Shown here: positions 16,432 through 62,023 of the stretch, one piece after another
Layout: the number at the start of each line of letters is the position of its first letter
How positions within the stretch are numbered: the first letter of the stretch is position 1
Assembly: GCF_947623445.1 (NCBI RefSeq)
Contig: NC_135240.1
Coordinates: 6,758,001-6,822,000, forward strand
Direction of reading: 5' to 3'
DNA length: 64,000 nucleotides
Source of the DNA: Clavelina lepadiformis
Taxonomy: Eukaryota > Chordata > Ascidiacea > Aplousobranchia > Clavelinidae
Made by a program: the position numbers and the translations under genes
Notes under the pieces: generated by a model
Told to the model about the DNA's origin: nothing
What the model saw: only the letters and a program-made list of their open reading frames with translations
Databases searched by the model: none

Positions 16432-17941
16432 AGGTTTTCTTTAGTTTACTTCACGCTTCGATTAAGCTGCGCAATGAATATGCTTTTGTCTTGCTCATGA
16501 AGCCATTGCCAGAACACTTGAAATTCACCAAGACTGAGTCGTCTGTATTGTTTTCTTATCTGGATAAACCTGAGATGAAACTCTTGCTTTGTGGGAAAAC
16601 TTCAATAATGATCTCACAAAGATGTTTCATTACGTCATAATCAAAAAGTTCAAGTGTGTCAGGAATACCTCAAAGAACTCAGGATAAAAATGCTAAGGAG
16701 TTGAGCGGATAAACCGATTCAATTAACTAACTTTTAAACACAAATCAAAGCATGGACGCAAAAAACAGAGTTTCTGCGAACAACATTATAAACTGTACTG
16801 TATAGATATTGGAAAAGTTTTCGTTCGTTTATTTCGGCTGAATCCACTGCCCGGAAAATTTTGCCATACTTGCATTTTGTGTTCGATACAGAAGCTTATA
16901 ATATTTTTGTGCTTTCGAAATTCAGCCCAATTAAAATGTTGCCGTCTATATCGTTTTATTCTCGTTATATTGCTTTTATTCAGTGCAAAAGATGCGTTGT
17001 TTATTGCCATGACTACCGTGTGTAATTAGTTTGCCCTGTAAATATGTTTAATGGAACCGAAGTTTCGCAGTACGGTATAAAAACCTTGTATAGGTATCCT
17101 TTTATTTTTGTGTGTGTATGGATGGTGTAACAGTACCGTATATGGTTGGTAAACGCCACAGATAAAATGCTCCTATAATAGGACAATATGTGCGTGTGTT
17201 TGTGTGTTAATTATCCGGGTTGCATTTCACCAATTTATTATTAAAAGACCGGTAATATTGGCTGAAAGTTATATTACGTGTTTTTTAGAACAAAGAATTC
17301 GACTTTTTTGTATATTTGCTTAAAGCGCATTTTAAAGGAACTTGTACACAGGGCATAAACTAGACCTGCTTTTTTTGACTGTTTTCAATTAAAAAAAAAT
17401 TCCTCGGCATTAACACATGACTTTGATATAGGCTACTTGGTGAACTAAGAATTGCGACACCTTTTTTGTATTGTGGAACCTTCATTGAAACAATCTACAC
17501 AATACACATTGCAACTACTTATATGTAAAATAAATTAATGGAAAACACTATGAGGTCCACTAACAATCAAAACATGCAAGATGAACCAAAAAGATGAGCC
17601 GTCTAATAGAGTACCATGTTCAACCTTTGGTAAGAAACGCATTAAAATATTTGACGTAAAATGGTGGAAAGTTGACAGAAAGTGAAATCAGAGTTCCTTG
17701 TGATCGACGACAGGTGACCATCAAACTGGATGAGTTTTACAACTTGTCATAAATAGTTGCGCCTTCTAAATGCTTTTCTTCACTTTTGCTGTTGGCCTGA
17801 AACGGAGAATAACTTAATAATGCATTGTGTTCAAAGAGTAAATTGGCTTACAACTGTTTAGACTCAAAATCATTTTCAACAATGAAAGAAATCATGATAA
17901 TCTTTAAATTAACTACAAAATATCCGAAATCTAAACAGGTT
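16432..17941. other. Convergent intergenic region between DACH and GlyR gene A
   Basis: This stretch separates the stop of dachshund (+ strand) from the stop of GlyR-like gene A (- strand), so both 3' UTRs must lie in it. An AATAAA word on the + strand near 17528 could serve a long dachshund 3' UTR. I cannot place the polyadenylation sites with confidence, and I see no further gene. Confidence 0.5.
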
Positions 17942-20900
17942 TTATAAACATTCGCTTGAATGCCAAATACCAACTATGCAGCGGAGAAAATAAGCTAAAG
18001 TTTTATTTTTAGCCTTAAGATCTACCAGGTAAGAGATCCAGTAAAAAAGATTGAAGATAGCGAAAACAGACGGGAAAAGAATGCGCGAAATCCGGTCAAC
18101 GAGCGCGGCTTTCTGTTGGTATTTTTTTGCCAGTTTCTCATTTTCTTTTTCATTATCCTGTGATAAAAAGACAAAAAGGAATCGGTAGAGTAACATTTAT
18201 CGGCAGCACTAGGCAAGAAACTGATTGACTACGGTTGCATTGCAGGTTGGGGCATTCTTTCTACAACGATTGTTTGCCAACGGCTTTTATTATGACGTAA
18301 TCGTGGTTGCACATTTTGATTGCGAGACTTAACTTTCCAAGCTTGACTTTGGTACCATAAGCATAAGAAGTTAAAGTAACTTTTGTAAAATAACCAGTTA
18401 AACACATTTCCAAGTTCTCTTTTCTTAGTTTGTTCAATCGAATTAAAGGTATAATGGTTAGCTCGAGAATCAGATGGGTAGTCAAGGTACAGTACTGGTA
18501 GCCTATCTGCAACCCTTAAACTCGTTATAAGACCAAGTGGAAACTTTCAAGGTAAGCTTAGTAGTTAAATACTAACTGTATGCCTCTAGAGGGGACAGCT
18601 AGGCTAGGAGCCAGGCACAATTGTACGAACTTGCTGGAACTTTTGTGTGAACACTGGACAATGGACATCGGTGTTTACATTTACTTCTTGATTATGTGAA
18701 CTTTTAGATAGCAGACTAGATGTCGTTACGCTTTACATTACAGTAATGGTTAACTGAAACAAGTTTAGTGTCGTTTTGCTTAACAGGTTTTAACCGTAAC
18801 ACCGGTTTGCTTGAACACCTCTACTTGTCATTCGTTTATCGTTATCACTGTCTGTGATTATGCAACTTACTGCAGTAATACCTTCAAAGGTGGATTGCCA
18901 ACTATCCAGTTTTGGTGAAATTCCGTAAATTCGTCCGATTTTGAAGTCACAATTTTCGAGTCGGTTCGTTGATGCCTGTCGGGTTTCTTTAGAAACGTTT
19001 GCCTGAACGCTTGCTGTGACGAAATTAGAGTCCAACTTAGCGTACTAGCCTACTACATGTAGTAATGATAACCTGCTGGTAAATTCTAACTGAGGTGTTG
19101 CACGATTGTGCAGACAACTAAACACCAGTTTACTTAATCGGGATTCATATTGTATGCTGACGCAAAGAAATGTATTGTAGGTTAAGGCAGTCAACCTTAT
19201 GCTTAGATCTTCGTTTTATTCAAAGAGAATCTCGCAGTTTTGTCGTAAGAATTTGAAGCGTAGAATTTTTGCGGACTCACCGTTTGTTTGGACAACCAAC
19301 TTCTCTTTAAGAGATTCTTTCTCTGACGAGAGAGGAAATTGACGGCAGCGAATTCGAGAAGAGCTGCGAAGACGAAAAGAAGGCAAACTGCCATCCACAC
19401 ATCGATAGCTTTTACGTACGAAACCTTACAACAAATGACATCATAATGACATAATCATATTTGTTTTGTCATAAAGGTATCGAGGATTTGGCAACCTTAG
19501 GCAAAGAAGCTCTTGCCCCTGAGCTCTGCGTGGTCATAGTGAGGACGGTGGTGATCCCAAGAGCGGTTCTGGCGGGAGCAGCATCCATGTTGATCCAGAA
19601 GGATACCCAGGATAGGATGACGATGAGTGTAGATGGGATGTAAGTCTGGATCATGTAGTATCCCTTCTCTCTCTTCAGGATAAAGGTTACCTCAATGCAA
19701 GTGAAAGACCCTAAGAAAGGTATACACTGTATTTTTAACTGGAGTCTGGAAAAAATGGTTGCGCTTTTGCCATAGTTTACACTCGCGCAAGGTTGCGCCC
19801 ACCACTTGAAGGTAAACAGATGCAATGACGATATGACTTAATATGCTCTTAATGGAAATATTTACGTTCATTTTTGTATTAAGGCACAGTATTTTTCAAA
19901 CAGCCTTGCCGTCGTTTTCGTTTTTAACCTCTTACCCGAGTCGTAGACCTTAGTACAGGAATTAAGCTTCCAACCGAGTATCTTGAACTGTGGAAGAAGT
20001 AGTTTGTCTGCCATCAGTACCGCCTTCTCTTTCTGCCACTCGAACACTAAATCGTTCATGTCATAAGCATCTGTCGATATAAAGATTTCGGTGACTTCTA
20101 AACTTCAGTTAAAAATCACTTCAACTATCAGTAACAAATATTAGGAGATACTTACCATAAATATCTACACATGCCAGTTTAATACTTTATCACCATTCAT
20201 ACTTGTTACAACATTGTACTGGTCAATTAGTGGCCTACCAGCCAAAAAAACAGGTCTTTAAGAGTTTCCCGCAAAACAATTTCTATAAATGGCAAAACCA
20301 CGATCTGCATCACTGTATCTCGTGCTTTCATACGTATAAGTTTCCAAATCAATCACGAATTAGTGCAGTGCTTGTGATTGCAAGGATTTAGTTTGCTAGA
20401 AAACTTTGTGAAATATACATTTGTAGTCAGAGGTGGGGAGTACCGCGGTACTTTCCCAGTACCGATACCGTCGGTACTTTTGGTATGTAAACCACCTTGT
20501 GACCGGAATTCTTTTACACTCAATAACCGCGTCCATTTATCTTATTTGTTCTCCTGATTTTAGGTCCCTCTTGTTCGAAAGTTGGTGGACACCTGACGTC
20601 CCTGAAAATTGGTCCTTGGCGAGGACTATAATTTAATTAGGATTTTGTCTTTGAAAAAATGTATTTTTAGAAAGAAGAACAAACTCCCAACAAAACAACA
20701 TCAAACTATGACGAAAATTCAGTGCTTGTTAGAAAAAGTTGTCACTAAAACATGGCGACGAAGAGCACGTTTAGCGCAAGGTACTTACAGCTTTCCAGCT
20801 GCATTTTGCACAGTTGTGTGTCCATTGGGAAATTCTGTAGATGCATCGCACAGGCCAAGGTCAAGCTTAAACGAATGCTCGTGTAAACGTCACCGTTTCT

Positions 20901-23900
20901 GTAGACTCGAAGCAGCTTGTTTTCCGTCGTCACCTACATAAGAAAGCACGATGACGTCAAACTTGTTACGGTTGGGTTTTCATTGCAGCTAAAACGTCAC
21001 ATGACATGTCAGTAACAAGGTAACTGACGAATGCAATGCAATTTCAAATGTCCTTTGCACAAAATACCCTGCGCTCAAACCTTTCATATTTGTCTTAGCT
21101 TTTGCAAGTCGTGGAAAGCTGCTATGGAACCCTTGATACCTACAAGCACGCTTGTGCATGCATGACGAAGATGAGAAGAAATAATATACCCTGCATGCCC
21201 CTCTGTTTTGTGACGGTTATATATTGGAACATTTGATGACGTTATCCTTTAATCAGACGTATATTTATCCTTTCTCAAGATCGCCATACAGATGTAATGT
21301 AGTCACGTTTTAATTTGGATTTTTGCCAATACAATACCAATTCCGCCGCTCTGTGACGACAGAACAGGCAATTTTTTTTTATCGTAGCCTGTTGAGTTAG
21401 GATCGGTGTTCGCATCCAGTAGCAAATGCGTTCTGGTCGAAAATAGACATGCACTTAATTTGATTACTTCAGTGAAGATGCTTTACGCTTGATTAAAGCT
21501 CGTTCGTGACGTGTCGAATGAACTTGTTGTATTGCTGCCGGTTTTGATGCGTTGCTCTGCGGTTTTAAACATGATTTTTGCCATTTAATTTGATTTTGTT
21601 GCCGGCAAGAAAGAGGCGAAGTTTTCTATACATTGCTTGTAACATTACACAGAAATCATATTTACTTGAAATTGTGATGGACCAGCGCGTTTGTTACGGC
21701 CAAGCAAAAGAAAACAATGGACTAGTTGAATAAATACCAGCAGTCAGGCTAGTTGCTAATTGTTGCCTTAACAATATAGTTAGCCCTAAAACGTGATGTT
21801 CCACCACTACACCTTGTGAAAGTCGGCCTTCTTTTCATTGGTAAAGAATAAATCCGGTCTCCAAATCTCTTCCATCATAGAGGGGTGTAAGGACACGGTG
21901 TCGTCCGGGTAGTCGTCTTTGTACGCTAATCTCGGATCATTCCATCGACATCGCAGAAATATATTTACCCTGTAGTCCTGTTAGTATAGATCTTTGAAGT
22001 TAATTTATCAGGATTTATAATTAAGTAGTTATACCCTTGGGATTTTCGTTGGTAGATTAAGACATCAAGCACGTAAGATACAAGGTTTGTCCAATGCATG
22101 ACTCAGTATTGATCAAGGTGTGGAAACAATTGTAGAATGAATTTTTTGAAAGAGTCACTGTCAATGACCTGTTCATATTTGTTATGCAATATAACTTCAA
22201 AACCCATTAAAATTATTTATCCAACAACGTTTAACACGCAAAAACACAGCATGCGTTTTCGAAATCAAAGCATAAACAATTTACACTTCAAACTTAACTA
22301 TTGTAGCAAGCGACCGAGCATCACAAACCAAATCACATTGTACTTCACTGCAGACGACGTGAAACGCAAATCGCTCTAAACGTTCGAGAATGCTGAATGG
22401 CGCATGCAAAATTGATAACTGGTAATTGTACAAGACTCGCGAGAGAAACAGCCTCTTTACGATTTCTACTCACCATGGTCGTCTCCTGTATCGAACCAAA
22501 ACTGTTAATGAAAACATTGACCGTATTGTTGACTGGGGCCCCTGATTTTTACAAGAAAAAAGATATTAAGCGGATGAAATATTTTTTCCCATTTTGTGGT
22601 ATTTCCGCTTAAAAATGAAAGTTTTTTTGACACGAAAGCCATTAAAACGCGGTAATCGGTGGACGGATGCAAACACAAATGCGGTAGGTTAATCCAAGCA
22701 TATGGCAGGCTGCTTATGTATCATATCATTGATAACAAAACGATGATGTTAGGATAACGCAAATAAGGTTAGTACAATGTAATAACAAAAACATTGTATT
22801 TGTAGGCTAATTGTTAATAACATAATGCAATGGCATGAAAACATGGTTAAAACACTGCAAAGTATACATAAAGGGCTTACCATACTAGTAGCTACTAAGT
22901 CATAAAACGTGTTAACGTAGACGCTTACAGTAGCGTTAACCCGTTGCTCTGGAATTGCAGCAAACATAAAACTTTACTTTGCAGTAATTGGACAAAGACA
23001 TTTTGAAACGCAGTATAGGTCGGTCTAATTATTGTTTAACGAAAGAATAACCTGTCTTAGGCTATGGAATGCATATAGTCAAAACAAGTTAAATATAAAT
23101 ATTAACCGAAGTACTGTACTCACTTTTATGATGAGGTCGAACACGTTTATCGTAACCCACAAGTAGGTTGCTGAGAAAATGGGACACATCGTCTGTCTCC
23201 GATTCTCCGGCTTTCGGAATCGAATTTGTCATTCTTGACGCCACCGTCTACAAATTACAGGTTTATATTCACATATTAATGGAAGACAAAACTTTTGACA
23301 GAAGAAACATCAATACGGTACCTCTCTGGCTGTGTCTTTGTCGTCATAATAATCAACCCAGTAATCATCTGAGTCGACTGATCTTTTCTGATATTTTTTG
23401 GAAGCAAGATTATGCTGAAATCCTTCAAAACGAATTCTGGCAGACAAGAAGCAATTTACCATAAGTAAGATAATATCAAAGGTGTAGCGTATCATCCGAA
23501 ATTCAACTGTCATCAAACACTTCTGTAACAAATCAATATTGATTGTATCATTAGTGGCTAAAAGGTAGGTAACTTTAGAAAAAACAAGGTTACACTTGCA
23601 AAACCAATCGTTTCAAAAAGAATGCAAGCCCTAATGCGTGCTTGTGGTTTGGTTGAAACAAGTTTATAAGTTTTCTGGGATGGTAACATGCGACTGCATC
23701 AGCACTGCATTAGCTTACGACGTCAGAGCATAAAGGTTTCCCGCCCTTACGTCACACGTCTATACATATCATCAAGACAATACAGAGACCTATGTTAACA
23801 TATTTACTCTTACGAAGTGTTTCCTGGATTTTAACTATTCTCTGCTATTGTGGGAATGTTTCATTTTCTTTCCAACGCGTTTTTTTAATCATTCACAACG

Positions 23901-24479
23901 GGAATAGAGAGTAGGGTTTCCATAATTGTGATCAAAAAGTAAGTAATCTGCTTTAAATAAAAACAGTTATACATACATTTTAGAAATTACGGTCCATAAA
24001 ACCGTATAACGAATGCCATCGAGTTTTGAGTAATAAACAAACAAAAGAATGTTTTTTCAGACCAAAATTCGATTTTGTTCCAACTATACTCTATATATTT
24101 TTAACACATTAAGATACATTAAAATTTTCCATTACTTTTGTCAATTTATAAGATTTTCAAATATCTCAGTTTATATAATTTCAAATAAATGGAAACTATC
24201 GTTTCTAAAAACGCCTTATCATTATCTTGTCTATATGCATATTAAATAACACATCAAGTGTGTTGCGGAACGCGGAGGAAATAGCTTCCATTTTAGATGT
24301 GATTATGCGTTTATACCGTTCTAATAAAAATTTCATCAAATTATGGATATATTTGAATAATTTATCAGCTATATACCGAAATAATAATTTACCTTTCGTG
24401 CTTACCTTTCAGTAGCCGAACTCCTGCCAAGTGCAAAGGTCACGAGAAATAAAAACGTCATCTTCAGCATTGCTTTCAT
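17942..24479 (-). CDS. Glycine receptor alpha-like Cys-loop channel subunit, gene A (complete; alternative exon 4/5)
   Basis: Ligand-gated chloride channel subunit of the plasma membrane. Exons in order of transcription: 24406-24479 (start, signal peptide), 23322-23436 (acidic insert), 23124-23247, 22881-22948 or 22474-22541 (alternatives), 21813-21977, 20789-20933, 19936-20070, 19496-19710, 19281-19424, 17942-18157. With one alternative exon the frame is continuous and gives 466 residues. Visible features are the [19 protein letters not shown]ys loop, loop [14 protein letters not shown], and a complete TM2 ([20 protein letters not shown]) with the basic residue of [10 protein letters not shown]3 and TM4 ([20 protein letters not shown]) are intact, and the cytoplasmic loop is short. 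The PAR motif before TM2 predicts anion selectivity. It is a tandem paralogue of gene B. Whether glycine is the true agonist is inferred from the family. Confidence 0.93.
20428..20495 (+). mobile_element. hAT-like element end (CAGAGGTGGG terminus), fragment
   Basis: The sequence CAGAGGTGGGGAGTACC followed by repeated GTACCG words looks like the terminal inverted repeat and subterminal repeats of an hAT-type element. A related end in the opposite orientation is at 29162-29254. I found no matching second end nearby, so this is a fragment inside an intron of GlyR gene A. Confidence 0.5.
22474..22541 (-). other. GlyR gene A alternative exon 5 (68 bp, canonical copy)
   Basis: This 68-bp exon has acceptor ATCAG| and donor ATG|GTGAGT, phase 1 in and phase 0 out. 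It encodes [22 protein letters not shown], close to the vertebrate GlyR alpha sequence at the same place ([14 protein letters not shown]). The single 68-bp exon of gene B at 28482-28549 has the same length and phase and the same core VNVFINS. Confidence 0.88.
22881..22948 (-). other. GlyR gene A alternative exon 4 (68 bp, divergent copy)
   Basis: This 68-bp exon has acceptor CCAG| and donor ATG|GTAAGC, starts in phase 1 and ends in phase 0. It encodes [15 protein letters not shown] then YDLVATSM. It aligns position by position with the exon at 22474-22541, including the Asn-X-Thr sequon, VNxF and the terminal Met. It is clearly less like vertebrate GlyR alpha than the other copy. Using it together with exon 5 would shift the frame (136 nt), so the two are expected to be mutually exclusive. 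Confidence 0.8.
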
Positions 24480-26280: not shown

Positions 26281-29200
26281 TTATTCTTTTACCAAGTATG
26301 TGGACCAGTAGGTGATGTTGAAGATGACAAAGATCATTGGGAAGAGGATTCTGGAACATTTATCCATCTTAATCGCTCTTCTCCTGCAACTGTTTGCTTT
26401 CTGAAATTTTCCAATCTGTTAGTTCTAAAGATTTGTTCGGATTTCACATCAAAAAAGTCAAATATGCTTATTATGGTGAATATCGATAAACAGCTCGACA
26501 GATAAAAAGTTCAGAAGCAAACACTTTGTAACAAATGAGAGAGCTTAAATAGTACGCTGAGGTTTAGAATAAAAGCTTCATAACTAAATGTAGTTGATCA
26601 CGATTATGACCACTACAATGCCTCTGTCTAGGACCTACCATCTTCGATTTTGCGTTAAGCACTCCTTGCTTGCCCACCGATGACTCACTTGCTACCTCCA
26701 ACTCTTTGCTGTTCATAGAAGAAGTGCTTTGCGATTTGTACGACATCACCTAGCATTCGGAGTAGAATGACAAACGCTACAACAAGTTTGAAATCAAGGG
26801 AAAAAAACGCGAACAACGAGAAAACACTGTTTGTCCTTGTCTAGGATGACTTTCGTGCATCCACTTTACGAAAATAAAGTATGACACAACGTAGTCTGAC
26901 CTGCTTTCTCGAAAGGTAGTTGACGGCTGCAAACTCCACCAGCGCTAAGAATACAAAAGTAAGGCAAACAGCCATCCAAACATCAATAGCTTTCACGTAT
27001 GACACCTTTGATGAGGATAAAAGGTATAACCTTCATGCCTAGACGCGCACACACACAAAGAAAGCGCACGAAAGCACAGCAACCACGCATGACGTCAGAA
27101 ACAAACCTTCGGCAGCGAGGCTATAATCCCCGAGCTCTGCGTGGTCATAGTAAGGACGGTGGTGATCCCAAGAGCGGTTCTGGCGGGAGCAGCATCCATG
27201 TTGATCCAGAAGGATACCCAGGATAGGATGACGATAAGAACCGAAGGGATGTAGGTCTGGATCATGTAATATCCCATCTCTCGTCTTAAAAAGAAGATCG
27301 CCTCGATGCAAGTGTATTGCCCTGTGGGAGAGAAGAAAGAAAATCTGCACCTCGGCTGTTACCAAAGATTGTCATAAAATTTGGGTCGTTTCAATTATTT
27401 CAGAGGGCTGTATTAAACTAAACCTGTGTCGTAAGTCTTGGTACAAGTCTGAAGTTTGTGGTCTAAGATTTCAAACTGTGGCAAGATCAGGTCCTCTGCT
27501 ATCTGGATGGGATTATTTTCGGCCCAAAAAAAGAAAAGGTCGCTCTGGTTGTAGCCATCTGCGAAGTATAGAAACATTGGAAGTATTCCAAAATATGAAC
27601 AAAAAAGTCTTGTATGTTCAGTCAATTTTAGTCCTTTATGAAGTGAACCCTCGATCATTTCAGCCCCTTTTAAAAATCTGGTTGAACAATGTTATATAAT
27701 AATAATAGGTCAAAGTTGTTATATAATAATAGGTTAAAGTTTACAGGGATTGAATCTCCCCGGTCAATGATTAATCCTTTCAAAATGTCTTACAACTCTC
27801 AAGTTGCATTTTACACATCTGTGTGTCCATCGGGAAACTTTGAAGAAGCATCGGGCAAGCCAGCGTGAGACTCAGTCGAATGCTCGTGTATACGTCACCA
27901 TCCCAGTGTAAACGAAGCAGTTTGTTTTCGGTCGTCACCTGTACGACGGAACTTGTAAAAGATTTGTAACCTTGTTGTTCTTCTTTTATATGCTCCTCGG
28001 ATGTACATTAAAGTTTACATGTTGCAAAGTGGATATTTCATTTTATAGATTTGGGATAAAAATAACCATCTTTTGGTGTTACCAGGTCTTCTATATGTAA
28101 ATCCTCTATGATTGTATGGTTAATCATTAAATTATTATCTACTTTTCTTAAGTCAAAATATTAACTTGTGAAATCAAGGAAATGCTCTGACCTTGTGAAA
28201 ATCTGCTCTTTTCTCATTTGCGAAAAATAGATCCGGGATCCAAATCTCTCTCATAAAACCAGGATGCAAAGTCATTGATTTACCATTTGATATATTATAA
28301 CGAAGTCGTTCGTCGTTCCAGCGACACCGGAGGAAAATGTTCACTTTATAATCCTATCGCGTAGTAGCAGTACAGAGAATTGGAACAAATTACAATAGAA
28401 CAGGGTTGCTTTACAAAATTATTTTGAACTTTGACTGTTTTTCGTATAAAATTTTTGATTACAATTACAGTAAAATCTTACCATTGATGCTTCTGTGACC
28501 GAACCTATGCTGTTGATGAAAACGTTGACAGACACATTTATGGGTGCAGCTGAAACGATTATATTTACCTGTAGTTAGAGCTATGTCGTGACATATGGGC
28601 TCACCCACCAAAGATTTCGTCAAATGAGTTTTGTTATGTCATTTACTATACACCACAATTGCACACAAAGATAAAATAATGACTTCTAATTTATGAAAAT
28701 TACAAGCATGTAAATTAGAACTATATCTATAAGAAATTACGAGATTAGACCCATAATATACTTCTATAATGTGGTCGAACGTGTTTGTCGTATCCAAGGA
28801 AAAGATCGTTCAAAAAATCAGCCGCTTTGCTGACTTGAGCCTTCAGCTTCAACGAAAATTTAAAATCAAAATATTACATATGTCATCCTGCTATTATATG
28901 GGTCTAAGGGTTGGAAATAACATGCTAATTAACGACAGTTTACGACACCAACAATAACAACTATTCAGTATTGACTGCGGTGAATGATGTTGTTGCTAAC
29001 ACTGTAAATTGGATGAGTGAAAAGATTTAATTTACTTTTTTTACGTGGTGAGACGTTCTAGAAGTTTTTCCCGAATGGCCATCCGGTCCTGCATATACCC
29101 TGAAACATAAATATTTCAAATTGAAATGAACGCTCTCATAAACAAAACATAAAAGCCAGTTTAGGTACCGAATACCGGAACCGTCGGTACATTTTTTGCC

Positions 29201-30363
29201 AAGTACCGGTACCGTTACCGACGGTACTTCCAAAGTACCGATTGCCCACCTCTGTCTTTAGACGACATAAGTTTTTCATTGTTAGTAGAATCAATGTGAT
29301 TATTTCCCGTTGCACAAAATTGCCTCATAAAATTCCAGGTAAAAAAGCCTCTAGCATAAATTAATATAAGGCTATAGGCTGTAAATATTTAATGACTGCA
29401 ATCCATCTTAAGTGCGTTGACACTGCGTAGGGAATGATCGTTTTAACGCAGAGATTTGAAAAGCTTTGCTTCAGAGTGCCAATCGCAATCGTCTTTGAAA
29501 ATATGTGTTTCATATTTTATCATTTCATTGTTAATAAAATAGGCCTACACTGTGGTTATTTGACATAAGGATTAATGAAGAACGTAAATACTGTATAACT
29601 ACGACTATAGCCTTTAATTTCTGCACATCAATATTTTATATTGCTGAAGGAGTTTGTTGACCCAAACTTAGCCATATATAGGTCTATACCGAAACATGAA
29701 CTTTAATTTACACTATAATTTCAAACAGGGTTGTCAAAAGTGATTAGGGTGTCCATTTCAGAGAAGGAAATGTCGCGCGCACCTTTTAAAATTACAAATA
29801 TGAGTGAATTACGTTTCCGAATGTGTATAAAAGTGCCTTAGGACCTGTCAGTAAGTATGGAAACTGCAAAGTCCCACCAATCTTGTGTCTCGCATCACGT
29901 TGTCATAATTTCTGTCGGCCTACGCCAAGTTTTAAAGTTTTTGCAAAAAAACGTTTCAAACAATTTTGGAAAAATCTGTTACAATGCATGGAACAAAACT
30001 TTTATTTGAAAAACTTAAAGTGTTTCAGTAGTAACACTCCCAATTTTCCTTAGGCTTGGTAGCCTAATTAAAACAAGAAATGACGGAAGTTGTTATCGTT
30101 TCATTACAAGAAAGATTACTTAAGTTATTAAGTTACATTAGTTTTAACCAGAAAAAATAAAAACACGGAATCATTTTAAAAACGTGACCTAACGATCAAC
30201 AAAAATTTCCATCCAATATCGTAACTTTAAGGACGTTGAGTAATTCACAGCGGTATATTTTTCGCAAAAGCCATACTCACAGGTTTTTGTGCACGCCGTA
30301 GATGCTCTCAAATAACGTCACTAAAAGCACGAAACAGACAATAATCAGGCTTGCCCTGGCCAT
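26281..30363 (-). CDS. Glycine receptor alpha-like Cys-loop channel subunit, gene B (complete)
   Basis: Paralogue of gene A, 430 residues in 11 exons: 30281-30363 (ATG, signal peptide [20 protein letters not shown]), 29036-29099, 28762-28846, 28482-28549, 28192-28353, 27794-27938, 27424-27558, 27107-27321, 26901-27005, 26639-26749, 26281-26400. Core exon lengths match gene A exactly (68, 145, 135 and 215 bp), which supports both models. It has loop D VNIFLR, a Cys loop, loop [14 protein letters not shown], and a TM2 of [22 protein letters not shown]4 is [20 protein letters not shown], ending in KE. Unlike gene A it has an extra 37-residue exon in the TM3-TM4 loop. The residue pair after the TM2 SSG motif is Gly-Ile-Ile-Ala-Ser, so the usual basic residue is missing. 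The acceptor of 28762-28846 and the donor of 27424-27558 are weaker than the rest. Confidence 0.92.
27693..27742. repeat. Short AT-rich direct duplication
   Basis: GTTATATAATAATA occurs twice, each followed by (ATA)GGT-CAAAG or GGTTAAAG, about 27 bp apart. This is a small local duplication in an intron of GlyR gene B with no sign of function. Confidence 0.5.
29162..29254 (-). mobile_element. hAT-like element end (CAGAGGTGGG terminus), fragment
   Basis: Read on the - strand this begins CAGAGGTGGGCAATCGG and continues with several copies of GGTACCG or CGGTAC. It shares its terminus and repeat words with the fragment at 20428. It lies in the first intron region of GlyR gene B. Confidence 0.5.
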
Positions 30364-31557: not shown

Positions 31558-49324
<17,767 letters not shown>

Positions 49325-50422: not shown

Positions 50423-51303
50423 TCAAGAGATAATGCAACAGTTTTTCTTGGACGATTTCTTTTTCTTCTTCTCCACGCCTAAATTCTTTGTCATTTCCTC
50501 CAGAAGACAACGGAAAGCTTTGGGAACTTCAGCGTTGCAAGTTGCCGCCGTCTCAAAGAAACCGACGCACGAAAGGTCACGTGACAAAGCATTACCGATA
50601 TCTTGCTCGATTTCTCTGGACATCTCAGCCTCATCCACTTTATTGCCCACAAGCACCACCGGTATGCTTAGGCCCGCTGTGGCTGGAGACCTTGTCGGCG
50701 TCTCCACCGGGTTCTGCCCGTCATTTCTTGCCCCTTCTGGGTCGTTATTTTCGGCAGGGGCTTCAGCTTTTGACCCGAGGTTTTCGAAAAGTTTCTGAAG
50801 CGCTGTGGTCTTGAGTAATTGAAACGACGCCTTATCCACGACCGAGTAAACGACCATCACGCCTTGACAGTCTTTCAACCTCTCGTCGTCCAGGTCACGA
50901 AAGACAAGGACTTTGACGTCATATTTCCCAGTGTCGAGTTGGACGATCTTGGAAGGGTTGTCACCGGGTTCTGTGAATTATAAATCAGAAATAGAGATTT
51001 ACCGAAACGTAGTAAAACTCTAAAAACCTTTGCAATTTCGTTACAAAGTCGCGGGATGTTAATTCATACATCAAACAAGAGTTTATTTTTCTATAAGGGC
51101 TGTAGAGGTAGCGTAACTATTATCGAATGCACTGTTCTTCTGATGAAATGTCGTCACAAAATAAACTAAATCACACCCAACTCACCGTTAGAATCCCTGG
51201 GAGCAATCCAGCCGTTTGCAAATTGATGACTCAACGAATACTTTCCGACGCCCGAAGTACCCACTACAGCAATCTTCAGCTTTGGCAGAGATTTCTTTCC
51301 CAT
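50423..51303 (-). CDS. Ras-like small GTPase, array copy 1 (P-loop Ser to Tyr)
   Basis: Two exons, 51186-51303 (ATG, MGKKSLPKLKIAVVG) and 50423-50970, 221 residues. The P-loop is GTSGVGKYS, where Ras proteins have Ser/Thr in place of Tyr22. NKVD is present (149-152), as is the ETAA form of the SAK motif (179-182). A polybasic KKKKKSSKK stretch precedes a C-terminal CIIS CaaX box, predicting prenylation and membrane attachment. Switch I has no recognisable Thr, and the DxxGQ motif is replaced by FRDLDDER. A Pro/Asn/Glu-rich insert of about 40 residues precedes the NKVD strand. An AATAAA on the - strand (50261-50266) lies about 160 bp past the stop. Confidence 0.8.
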
Positions 51304-54001: not shown

Positions 54002-54882
54002 TCAAGAGATAATGCAACAGTTTTTCTTGGACGATTTCTTTTTCTTCTTCTCCACGCCTAAATTCTTTGTCATTTCCTCCAGAAGACAACGGAAAGCTTT
54101 GGGAACTTCAGCGTTGCAAGTTGCCGCCGTCTCAAAGAAACCGACGCACGAAAGGTCACGTGACAAAGCATCACCGACATCTTGCTCGATTTCTCTGGAC
54201 ATCTCAGCCTCATCCACTTTATTGCCCACAAGCACCGCCGGTATGCTTAGGCCCGCTGTGGCTGGAGACCTTGTCGGCGTCTCCACCGGGTTCTGCCCGT
54301 CATTTCTTGCCCCTTCTGGGTCGTTATTTGCGGCAGGGGCTTCAGACTTCGACCCGAGGTTTTCGAAAAGTTTCTGAAGCGCTGTGGTCTTGAGGAATTG
54401 GAACGACGCCTTATCCACGACCGAGTAAACGACCATCACGCCTTGACAGTCTTTCAACCTCTCGTCGTCCAGGTCACGAAAGACGATGACTTCGACGTCA
54501 TATTTCCCAGTGTCGAGTTGGACGATCTTGGAAGGGTTGTCACCGGGTTCTGTGAATTATAAATCAGAAATCGAGATTTACCAAAACGTAGTAAAACTCT
54601 AAAAACCTTTGCAATTTCGTTACAAAGTCGCGGGATGTTAATTCATACTTCAAACAAGAGTTTATTTTTCTATAAGGGCTGTAGAGGTAGCGTAACTATT
54701 ATCGAATGCACTGTTCTTCTGATGAAATGTCGTCACAAAATAAACTAAATCACACCAAACTCACCGTTAGAATCCCTGGGAGCAATCCAGCCGTTTGCAA
54801 ATTGATGGCTCAGCGAAGACTTTCCGACGCCCGAAGTACCCACTACAGCAATCTTCAGCTTTGGCAGAGGTTTCTTTCCCAT
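54002..54882 (-). CDS. Ras-like small GTPase, array copy 2 (intact P-loop)
   Basis: Exons 54765-54882 and 54002-54549, 221 residues with no indel against copy 1. This is the only copy with the canonical P-loop GTSGVGKSS (codon TCT at 54817-54819). NKVD, ETAA, polybasic tail and CIIS are kept, and the same degenerate switch regions are present. The polyadenylation word on the - strand is at 53824-53829. If one copy binds nucleotide normally, this is the best candidate. Confidence 0.82.
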
Positions 54883-56468: not shown

Positions 56469-57578
56469 TCCGTCGATTTATCGCTATAATTTATTCATTC
56501 TCTCTTTTCTTTTATTTTCTGAAAAGTCACTGTTTTCGGCTGATCGAGCCTAGCAACCTCTACGTTCTCTCATCCAATTTATCCTGTTGACTACCGTGCA
56601 ATTGTTTGTCGCTGTTTTTTTCGTCGGTCTGTCATACCACGTTGCAAGTTGCCATAGTATTAGCACAAGGCGTTTTGTTACGGCCGACAAAACTTTTCCT
56701 GGCGGTCCATTTTGGCTGTGTCCATTAACAACAAAGTGTGGAAACTATTTTATTTCTTCATGTTTCTTCGACGGGGAAAAGCACATTCAGCTCCCCTGCG
56801 ATGTAGGCTCATATTTACTGGTTGGTTTGGTGACATAACAACTTGCTGGACAATTGATTTTGTTGGTTGTTGTTGTTCTAGTGTGGAGTTTTACCACAGA
56901 AGGACATCCAGGCTGCTGGTGTAAGTGTTTTACTTTACACACTTGGTCTTGGTTCTAATCCCTTAATTCTACAGCGTCGGATCAAGGAGGCTTTTGCTTG
57001 CTTTTATTTATTAAAATCTTCAAACACGTGACGACTGAAAATATGCAATTAGCCAATATTGGGCGAAATCATTTACGTACGGGTTGAGGACACGGTAATT
57101 ATGCGGTTAGTAGAACTGTAAGGCAAAGAGAATTATAAATTATTTCACTTTCAGTAAGTTACGCAGACCGTTGTTAAAGACAGGCGGTTAGGTTAGGAGA
57201 ATGATTATGTAAAAAGTTGATCTTAGCTAATTAGAGTGTAATTAAAGCTAGATTTAGACCAGAAAGAGGATTTAGGTCAGAATATCGTAACATTTAAGTT
57301 AGGAATGCGCGATTTTTCCCGGTGAAATTGATGGAAGCGTAAAGCAAATGGCTAAACAATAATGAAACAAAGAGCATAGCTTGGATTAAAAGCAAAGATC
57401 TTTTATTCAGCAGTAAGGCGGGACAGACACAGATAAAACGAAGCCGCAATGTTAAATGTAACAAGATTTTTCGCGTTGCAAAAACCCATCACAATGTAAA
57501 ACGTGCAATATAACAATCCTGTACGTTAACAACACGGTAAAATGAACGAAAACATAAGTCAAAGTTTTTCGAGCACCT

Positions 57579-58459
57579 TCAAGAGATAATGCAACAGTTT
57601 TTCTTGGACGATTTCTTTTTCTTCTTCTCCACGCCTAAATTCTTTGTCATTTCCTCCAGAAGACAACGGAAAGCTTTGGGAACTTCAGCGTTGCAAGTTG
57701 CCGCCGTCTCAAAGAAACCGACGCACGAAAGGTCACGTGACAAAGCATCACCGACATCTTGCTCGATTTCTCTGGACATCTCAGCCTCATCCACTTTATT
57801 GCCCACAAGCACCGCCGGTATGCTTAGGTCCGCTGTGGCTGGAGATCTTGTCGGCGTCTCCACCGGGTTTTACCCGTCATTTCTTGTCCCTTCTGGGTCG
57901 TTATTTGCGGCAGGGTCTTCAGACTTCGACCCGAGGTTTTCGAAAAGTTTCTGAAGCGCCGTGGTCTTGAGGAATTGGAACGACGCCTTATCCACGACCG
58001 AGTAAACGACCATCACGCCTTGACAGTCTTTCAACCTCTCGTCGTCCAGGTCACGAAAGACAAGGACTTTGACGTCATATTTCCCAGTGTCGAGTTGGAC
58101 GATCTTGGAAGGGTTGTCACCGGGTTCTGTGAATTATAAATCAGAAATAGAGATTTACCAAAACGTAGTAAAACTCTAAAAATCTTTGCAATTTCGTTAC
58201 AAAGTCGCGGGATGTTAATTCATACTTCAAACGGGAGTTTATTTTTGTATAAGGGATGTAGCGATAGCGTAACTATTATCGAACGCACTGTTCTCCTGAT
58301 GAAATGTCGTCACACAATTAACTACATCACACCAAACTCACCGTTAGAATCCCTGGGAGCAATCCAGCCGTTTGCAAATTGATGACTCAACGAATACTTT
58401 CCGACGCCCGAAGTACCCACTACAGCAATCTTCAGCTTTGGCAGAGATTTCTTTCCCAT
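57579..58459 (-). pseudogene. Ras-like small GTPase, array copy 3, nonsense-mutated
   Basis: Exons 58342-58459 and 57579-58126 have the same lengths as the other copies (118 and 548 bp), but codon 125 (Gln, CAG elsewhere) is TAA at 57870-57872. This removes NKVD, ETAA and the CaaX box. Tyr is at the P-loop position. The splice sites remain intact, so decay seems recent. A truncated product of 124 residues is possible in principle. Confidence 0.82.
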
Positions 58460-61142: not shown

Positions 61143-62023
61143 TCAAGAGATAATGCAACAGTTTTTCTTGGACGATTTCTTTTTCTTCTTCTCCACGCCT
61201 AAGTTCTTTGTCATTTCCTCCAGAAGACAACGGAAAGCTTTGGGAACTTCAGCGTTGCAAGTTGCCGCCGTCTCAAAGAAACCGACGCACGAAAGGTCAC
61301 GTGACAAAGCATCACCGATATCTTGCTCGATTTCTCTGGACAGTTTAGCCTCATCCACTTTATTGCCCACAAGTACCACCGGTATGCTTAGGCCCGCCGT
61401 GGCGGGAGATCTTGTCGGCGTCTCCACCGGGTTCTGCCCGTCATTTCTTGCCCCTTCTGGGTCGTTATTTGCGGCAGGGGCTTCAGACTTCGACCCGAGG
61501 TTTTCGAAAAGTTTCTGAAGCGCTGTGGTCTTGAGGAATTGGAACGACGCCTTATCCACGACCGAGTAAACGACCATCACGCCTTGACAGTCTTTCAACC
61601 TCTCGTCGTCCAGGTCACGAAAGACGATGACTTCGACGTCATATTTCCCAGTGTCGAGTTGGACGATCTTGGAAGGATTGTCACCGGGTTCTGTGAATTA
61701 TAAATCAGAAATAGAGATTTACCAAAATGTAGTAAAACTCTAAAAATCTTTGCAATATCGTTACAAAATCACGAGATGTTAAATCATACTTCAAACGGGA
61801 GTTTATATTACTGTAAGGGCTGTAGAGGTAGCGTAATTATTATCGAATGCACTGTTCTGCTGATGAAATGTCGTCACAAAATAAACTAAATCACACCCAA
61901 CTCACCGTTAGAATCCCTGGGAGCAATCCAGCCGTTTGCAAATTGATGGCTCAGCGAATACTTTCCGACGCCCGAAGTACCCACTACAGCAATCTTCAGC
62001 TTTGGCAGAGGTTTCTTTCCCAT
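61143..62023 (-). CDS. Ras-like small GTPase, array copy 4 (P-loop Ser to Tyr)
   Basis: Exons 61906-62023 and 61143-61690, 221 residues. It has the P-loop GTSGVGKYS and keeps NKVD, ETAA, polybasic stretch and CIIS. Small replacements against copy 2 include AKLSRE for AEMSRE after NKVDE. The upstream flank of this last unit diverges from the others beyond about 62.2 kb, so its promoter may differ. Confidence 0.78.

What the first reader, a model, noticed from the sequence alone, without database searches (positions are those of the whole stretch)
22474..22948. Mutually exclusive duplicated 68-bp exons in a glycine-receptor-like gene
Gene A has two 68-bp exons in tandem, both phase 1 to 0, both with good splice sites and an Asn-X-Thr sequon at the same position. 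Including both (136 nt) or neither breaks the frame, so exactly one must be used. One copy is GlyR-like ([10 protein letters not shown]), the other strongly diverged ([10 protein letters not shown]). Vertebrate GLRA2 is known to have alternative exons 3A/3B at this same place, but they differ by only two residues. Here the two differ at more than half of positions, suggesting receptors with different properties from one gene. Either the arrangement is ancient or it arose twice.
Basis: partly seen in the sequence, partly recalled or inferred. Interest (0 to 1): 0.88.

Follow-up and report, generated by a model that had tools for sequence, protein, structure and literature searches.

The report
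Swappable exon in sea-squirt glycine receptor
A sea-squirt gene for a glycine-receptor-like channel carries two very different versions of one small exon, of which only one fits the reading frame at a time, so one gene should make two receptors that differ in a part linked to channel opening; the same trick is known in insects and vertebrates, but I found no report of it in sea squirts.

Summary
Gene A (minus strand) has two 68-nt exons, 22881-22948 and 22474-22541, both phase 1 to 0, with good splice sites and a sequon at the same place; 9 of 23 residues match. Shuffled and real-DNA controls exclude chance. Both or neither gives an early stop with seven junctions downstream. The species is Clavelina lepadiformis: my spliced gene A with the diverged exon equals an NCBI protein named isoform X2.

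Exon 3 of Cys-loop chloride channels is a known hot spot: GLRA2, insect RDL and GluCl (68 bp in Tribolium), nematode avr-14. This is a new member of a known kind, unusually diverged. A Styela clava isoform X2 carries a similar exon (Y44, Y49, no E53), hinting at an old tunicate origin; the exon tree cannot decide and warns of long branches. Ciona RACE found no splice variants. Neither intron pairing nor NOVA-motif enrichment was found; decay of out-of-frame products is the likeliest enforcement. No RNA reads were available, and functional consequences are inferred.

The parts
24406..24479 (-). Gene A coding exon 1 (signal peptide)
   Evidence: Spliced model identical to protein P0001
23322..23436 (-). 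Gene A coding exon 2
23124..23247 (-). Gene A coding exon 3, shared donor upstream of the alternative pair (GTGAGT)
22881..22948 (-). Alternative 68-nt exon, diverged version ([22 protein letters not shown]); corresponds to exon 3 of vertebrate GLRA genes
   Evidence: Splice sites and phase; present in NCBI isoform X2; one match detected in the genome
22542..22880 (-). 339-nt intron between the two alternative exons; no YCAY enrichment, no pairing above shuffles
22474..22541 (-). Alternative 68-nt exon, ordinary glycine-receptor version ([22 protein letters not shown])
   Evidence: Splice sites and phase; keeps 14 of 16 positions invariant in 181 GlyR-like proteins
21813..21977 (-). Gene A next shared exon (DYRVNIFLR...), acceptor for both alternatives
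20789..20933 (-). Gene A exon
19936..20070 (-). Gene A exon
19496..19710 (-). Gene A exon, M1-M2 ([19 protein letters not shown])
19281..19424 (-). Gene A exon, M3
18882..19013 (-). Gene A exon, intracellular loop
18026..18157 (-). Gene A exon, M4
17737..17796 (-). Gene A last coding exon with stop
   Evidence: matches the end of P0001
28482..28549 (-). Single 68-nt exon 3 of the tandem paralogue, gene B ([22 protein letters not shown]); no second copy found

Best explanation
Gene A is one of the two close glycine-receptor alpha-like genes found in Clavelina lepadiformis. Its exon 3 is tandemly duplicated, and productive transcripts must use exactly one copy, because 68 nt is not a multiple of three: double inclusion or skipping gives an early stop and should be removed by nonsense-mediated decay (frame logic shown; decay inferred). 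One copy codes for a canonical glycine-receptor segment, the other for a strongly altered one. The swap replaces strand beta1 and the beta1-beta2 loop (loop 2, part of the gating transition zone), leaving loop D, the pore and the sequon at position 38 in place. The altered copy changes the spasmodic site (A52), which is also a GLRA2 splice-variant site, together with G49 and E53, which are constant in the GlyR rows surveyed. I infer two receptors that bind glycine with largely the same pocket but differ in how binding is coupled to opening, and possibly in assembly or surface density. Which RNA-binding factor makes the choice is unknown.
For: Exon anatomy, phases and frame consequences. Chance excluded in shuffled and real DNA. 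NCBI isoform X2 of C. lepadiformis is letter-identical to the model with the diverged exon; the ordinary exon keeps 14 of 16 positions invariant in 181 GlyR-like proteins. Both isoforms (C-terminus not yet corrected) pass the Pfam ligand-binding and membrane domains far over cut-off; the ordinary one aligns over residues 80-484 with the solved GlyR alpha-3. Loop 2 and A52 in gating: PMC3162021, PMC3222680, PMC3484359 passages. RDL clones lacking exon 3 are known and truncated (PMC6121307 passage), the fate predicted here. Exon 3 choice changes GABA potency in RDL and, as cited in PMC12960926, response size and probably surface expression in Bombyx GluCl (passage). Styela clava isoform X2 carries a similar altered exon.
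Against: No junction reads were available; the isoform with the ordinary exon was not seen as a protein record (the cluster of P0001 has five members, only its representative is readable). Isoform names of this form come from a prediction pipeline (recalled), whose read support I could not inspect. No known exclusion device was found: the middle intron is 339 nt, both donors are ordinary GT sites, intron pairing is no stronger than in shuffles, YCAY not enriched. On function: PMC10380907 suggests that exon 3 splicing of GluCl may not affect binding of glutamate and insecticide, and PMC12960926 cites similar ivermectin sensitivity of two exon 3 variants. The structure prediction of the diverged isoform is of low confidence (mean pLDDT 56.9).
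Confidence: 0.9

Rival explanations
1. The altered exon arose once, before the split of the Clavelina and Styela lineages, and was lost or is unused in Ciona; the vertebrate GLRA2 pair arose independently.
For: Of 218 retrieved proteins whose segment could be read (219 less P0002), only the Clavelina isoform and Styela clava P0008 have Y at both 44 and 49; 212 of 212 other GlyR-like rows have F44, G49 and E53, which both lack. The best exon tree joins the two. No second Styela protein was seen in the best 120 rows of two searches, so an ordinary Styela exon, if any, would be in the same cluster.
Against: Support is weak (72/5), the program warns that these two are long branches that meet, and a Clavelina-only duplication is not rejected (p-AU 0.10, 0.076 with gene B added); the two are only 9 of 22 identical, no more than the diverged exon with its own neighbour or Ciona (9 of 22 each). 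I could not see whether Styela has both exons. Ciona RACE found no variants (PMC2822779 passage) and two Ciona proteins are of the ordinary type. Y44 also occurs in one mollusc and two GABA-A-like rows, and those GABA-A-like rows lack E53 too.
Confidence: 0.55
2. The altered exon duplicated within the Clavelina lineage and diverged fast; the Styela likeness is convergence at a site under repeated diversification.
For: Not rejected by the exon tree test (p-AU 0.10); exon 3 diversified repeatedly in insects, and related events are listed for nematodes and vertebrates. Gene B, tandem sister of A, has a single ordinary copy.
Against: 100 nt on either side of the two copies show no clear residual likeness (35% and 31% ungapped), so the duplication is not young; shared Y44, Y49 and loss of E53 with Styela.
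Confidence: 0.35
3. The altered exon is a decaying relic that is spliced in only by noise.
For: It keeps only 6 of 16 otherwise invariant positions.
Against: Open frame, sequon, intact splice sites, use in an NCBI isoform, similar altered exon in Styela.
Confidence: 0.05

Closest known systems
Vertebrate GLRA2 exons 3A/3B
   Same: Same gene family, alternative exon 3, mutually exclusive; GLRA2 T59, equivalent to alpha-1 A52 (PMC3162021), lies in the segment changed here
   Different: GLRA2 copies differ at two residues (PMC3484359 passage; that they are 58 and 59 is recalled) and are regulated by NOVA1 (PMC6079032 passage); here 14 of 23 residues differ and no YCAY enrichment is seen
Insect GluCl exons 3a/3b/3c
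   Same: 68-bp exon of 23 residues just upstream of loop D, alternatives strongly diverged (56.5-73.9% identity in Tribolium; PMC10380907 passages)
   Different: Glutamate-gated insect channel, three copies in Tribolium; here a glycine-receptor relative, two copies, 39% identity
Insect RDL exons 3a/3b(/3c)
   Same: Alternative exon 3 near loop D, splicing changes GABA potency or affinity; skipping truncates the frame (PMC2064938, PMC6121307 passages)
   Different: GABA receptor; [quoted passage not shown] additional alternative exon 6
Ciona Ci-GlyR
   Same: Tunicate GlyR, 56% identical to gene A
   Different: Authors report a single-copy gene and no splice variants in larval RACE fragments (PMC2822779 passages)

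Membership tests
Glycine receptor alpha-type subunit | Cys-loop ligand-binding and transmembrane domains | tested here: met
   PF02931 162 and 167 bits, PF02932 160 bits for the two isoforms, C-terminus not yet corrected
Glycine receptor alpha-type subunit | Groups with GlyR alpha; pore motif [19 protein letters not shown] | tested here: met
Glycine receptor alpha-type subunit | Glycine-gated chloride current, strychnine block | not testable with these tools
   needs expression and recording
Mutually exclusive exon pair | Two adjacent homologous exons of equal length and phase between constitutive exons | tested here: met
   68 nt each, phase 1 to 0, 36/68 bases and 9/23 residues alike
Mutually exclusive exon pair | Both or neither destroys the frame | tested here: met
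   stops at codons 154 and 118
Mutually exclusive exon pair | Each copy used in transcripts, never both | tested here: inconclusive
   Diverged copy is in NCBI isoform X2; ordinary-copy isoform and exclusivity not seen in transcript data
Mutually exclusive exon pair | Known enforcing device (intron pairing, too-short intron, incompatible splice sites) | tested here: not met
   Pairing as strong in 66, 31 and 77 of 100 shuffles, intron 339 nt, both donors ordinary GT; such pairs need not have one of these (recalled)
GLRA2-type exon 3A/3B | Common origin with the vertebrate pair | tested here: inconclusive
   GLRA2 copies differ at two residues only and all GLRA2 rows seen are of ordinary type, which points to independent origin; the exon tree has only 22 columns
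GLRA2-type exon 3A/3B | NOVA (YCAY) regulation | tested here: not met
   YCAY 1, 9, 6 in the three introns against 2.4, 6.7, 6.8 expected; in-silico count only

The most novel reading that the evidence does not exclude
The altered exon turns the same gene into a second kind of subunit, with a rebuilt loop 2 and changed residues beside the glycosylation site, that co-assembles with the ordinary isoform: one gene supplying both partner types of a heteromeric glycine receptor, the part that a separate beta gene plays in vertebrates, and conserved across tunicates since before Clavelina and Styela parted. (A protein search of the assembly with gene A found only genes A and B as close relatives, the other four matches being 35-50% identical; a beta subunit was not searched for by itself.)
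Probability: 0.15. Interest if true: 0.72.

Novelty: new member of a known kind. Interest (0 to 1): 0.5.

Why it matters
Tunicates are the sister group of vertebrates, and a glycine receptor is involved in their larval swimming (PMC2822779, title and passages). A deep, frame-enforced swap of the gating loop in one gene would give a natural pair of receptors for testing how loop 2 couples glycine binding to channel opening, and adds a chordate case to a site where exon duplication has recurred in animal chloride channels.

Tried and rejected
Chance duplicate: rejected by shuffles and by a real-DNA control. Third copy in gene A or second copy in gene B: none found. Duplicate exon 3 in other Clavelina Cys-loop genes: 17 regions scanned, exon-3-like hits in 5 of 17, one each; the other 12 gave no hit, so the scan misses distant forms, and regions were at most 10 kb. 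Intron complementarity and YCAY clusters: nothing above shuffles. A region-limited protein search with the altered exon returned only the species' own record, because one candidate alone shared enough short words; it is no evidence of absence. Exon-only tree: 22 columns, AU tests inconclusive, long-branch warning. AlphaFold of the altered isoform: strand 108-118, loop, strand 129-140 as expected, but mean pLDDT 56.9, so no fold search was run and nothing rests on it. I first let gene A's last exon run on into the intron (510 aa); the end of P0001 corrected it, after the queries had used the longer form. In one search the row labelled GABA_P0007orP0011 is in fact from P0010, and exon 3 columns were not left out of the whole-protein tree. 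In the exon survey 35 of 219 proteins escaped the pattern: 31 are ordinary GlyR on inspection, P0003, P0007 and P0011 are not of ordinary GlyR type, and P0002 could not be read; P0010 fitted the pattern but is GABA-like and was set aside.

Full report
Source. The 209-Mb assembly holding the window is Clavelina lepadiformis, inferred from a protein search: with the C-terminus corrected, my spliced gene A carrying the diverged exon is letter-identical to P0001, named by its source 'glycine receptor subunit alphaZ1-like isoform X2 [Clavelina lepadiformis]'. The published assembly is 210.1 Mb (PMC10884593, search listing and passages).

Anatomy. Gene A lies on the minus strand, twelve coding exons in each isoform, 24479 to 17737. 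Between the shared exons 23124-23247 and 21813-21977 lie two 68-nt exons, 22881-22948 and 22474-22541, separated by 339 nt. Both start in phase 1 and end in phase 0, with ordinary AG and GT sites (donor matches 7/9 and 8/9). They share 36 of 68 bases and 9 of 23 residues. Both or neither gives a stop at codon 154 or 118, with seven exon junctions more than 50 nt further downstream.

More than chance. Scanning 230,715 bases of the window and 17 other Clavelina regions, both strands, gave 377 open AG-68-GT windows. Scores against three ordinary GlyR exons: 111 and 78 for the ordinary exons of genes A and B, 50 for the diverged exon, 37-39 for four exons in other Cys-loop genes, and 10 or less for the rest. 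In 40 Markov strands of 64 kb the best score was 23; allowing GC donors, two plus-strand windows in the real sequence reached 24. One match to the diverged exon was detected in the assembly, itself.

What the swap changes. Residue numbers follow mature mammalian alpha-1, fixed by N46 and A52 in PMC3484359. In 181 GlyR-like proteins that fitted the pattern, out of 219 retrieved (the two altered rows and P0010 also fitted and were set aside, 35 did not fit), 16 of 22 positions never vary. The ordinary exon keeps 14 of these, gene B 11, the diverged exon 6, the Styela protein 8. The diverged exon has Y44 for F, Y49 for G, D50 for S, V at 52 and A53 for E. Adding 31 pattern misses that are ordinary GlyR on inspection, F44, G49 and E53 hold in 212 of 212 rows. 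These rows are mostly vertebrate; only two tunicate proteins, both Ciona, are among them. Position 52 is the spasmodic site, corresponds to T59 of GLRA2, and has been tied to the pre-open state and to agonist sensitivity (PMC3162021 passages; PMC3484359 passages). Loop 2 belongs to the transition zone of gating (PMC3222680 passages). N38 stays a sequon in both Clavelina exons; Styela lacks it. That E53 takes part in electrostatic coupling, and that exon 3 holds assembly-box residues, is recalled, not from a call.

Origin. Genes A and B are sisters (95/91) within a tunicate group (87/90) beside vertebrate alpha subunits, with gene B and Styela flagged as long branches. A protein search of the assembly found 12 matches: eight in genes A or B, four in more distant channels on C1 and C8, 35-50% identical. 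Styela clava P0008, isoform X2, has VQIYVNSFYSVIQASM, like the diverged exon in its two Tyr and in lacking E53. The best exon tree joins them, but with support 72/5 and a warning that long branches meet, and a Clavelina-only duplication is not rejected (log-likelihood 5.2 lower, p-AU 0.10). Identity is 9 of 22, no higher than between the diverged exon and its own neighbour or Ciona. Y44 occurs also in a mollusc and two GABA-A-like rows, and those two lack E53, so Y49 and the combination carry the weight. Against an old origin: Ciona has a single-copy gene, and RACE found no splice variants (PMC2822779 passages). The Styela ordinary exon could not be looked for.

Known counterparts. GLRA2 3A/3B (two residues; PMC3484359), NOVA1-regulated (PMC6079032 passage). 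RDL and GluCl exon 3 in insects (PMC2064938, PMC6121307, PMC12960926, PMC10380907 passages); TcGluCl exon 3 is 68 bp for 23 residues, with alternatives 47.1-66.2% alike in DNA and 56.5-73.9% in protein. [quoted passage not shown] Four searches of an open-licence library for this in tunicates showed no report (listings of 3 of 3, 6 of 6, 12 of 35 and 12 of 20 papers, of which I opened PMC2822779, PMC8699752 and PMC9741552 for passages).

Function in counterparts is mixed: exon 3 choice shifts GABA potency in aphid RDL and, as cited, response size in Bombyx GluCl, but ivermectin sensitivity of two GluCl variants was similar, and the Tribolium authors suggest that binding may be unaffected.

Regulation. 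Best pairing between the three introns was matched by 66, 31 and 77 of 100 shuffles; YCAY counts were 1, 9 and 6 against 2.4, 6.7 and 6.8 expected. The only exclusion device I can show is the reading frame.

Verdict. Confirmed, new member of a known kind; the functional reading is inferred.

Noticed in passing
window 19496-19710 and 27107-27321 (-): Genes A and B share 180 of 215 bases in the M1-M2 exon, with 85 of 86 alike in bases 87-172, while six other exons share 61-77%: looks like a gene-conversion tract over the pore, though strong constraint is not excluded.
   Followed up: partly
window 50423-50977, about 57541-57970, 54002-54556, 61143-61697: Tandem copies of a Ras-like small GTPase exon, about 3.5 kb apart (three open frames on the minus strand hit PF00071; a fourth copy is seen by its opposite-strand frame).
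   Followed up: partly
window 31558-31980 and 44094-44531 (+): DEAD helicase and RecQ zinc-binding pieces (the latter just over its cut-off) of what looks like a RecQ-like helicase gene on the plus strand.
   Followed up: partly
L022, L023, L035, L036, L038: In 5 of 17 regions with other Clavelina Cys-loop genes a single exon-3-like unit was found, 68 nt in four and 65 nt in L022, in the phase searched for, so the exon unit looks like an old, conserved module.
   Followed up: partly
window 26281-30363 (-): Gene B, a fast-evolving tandem GlyR paralogue (branch 1.72 against 0.56 for A); its N-terminal exons were not settled.
   Followed up: partly
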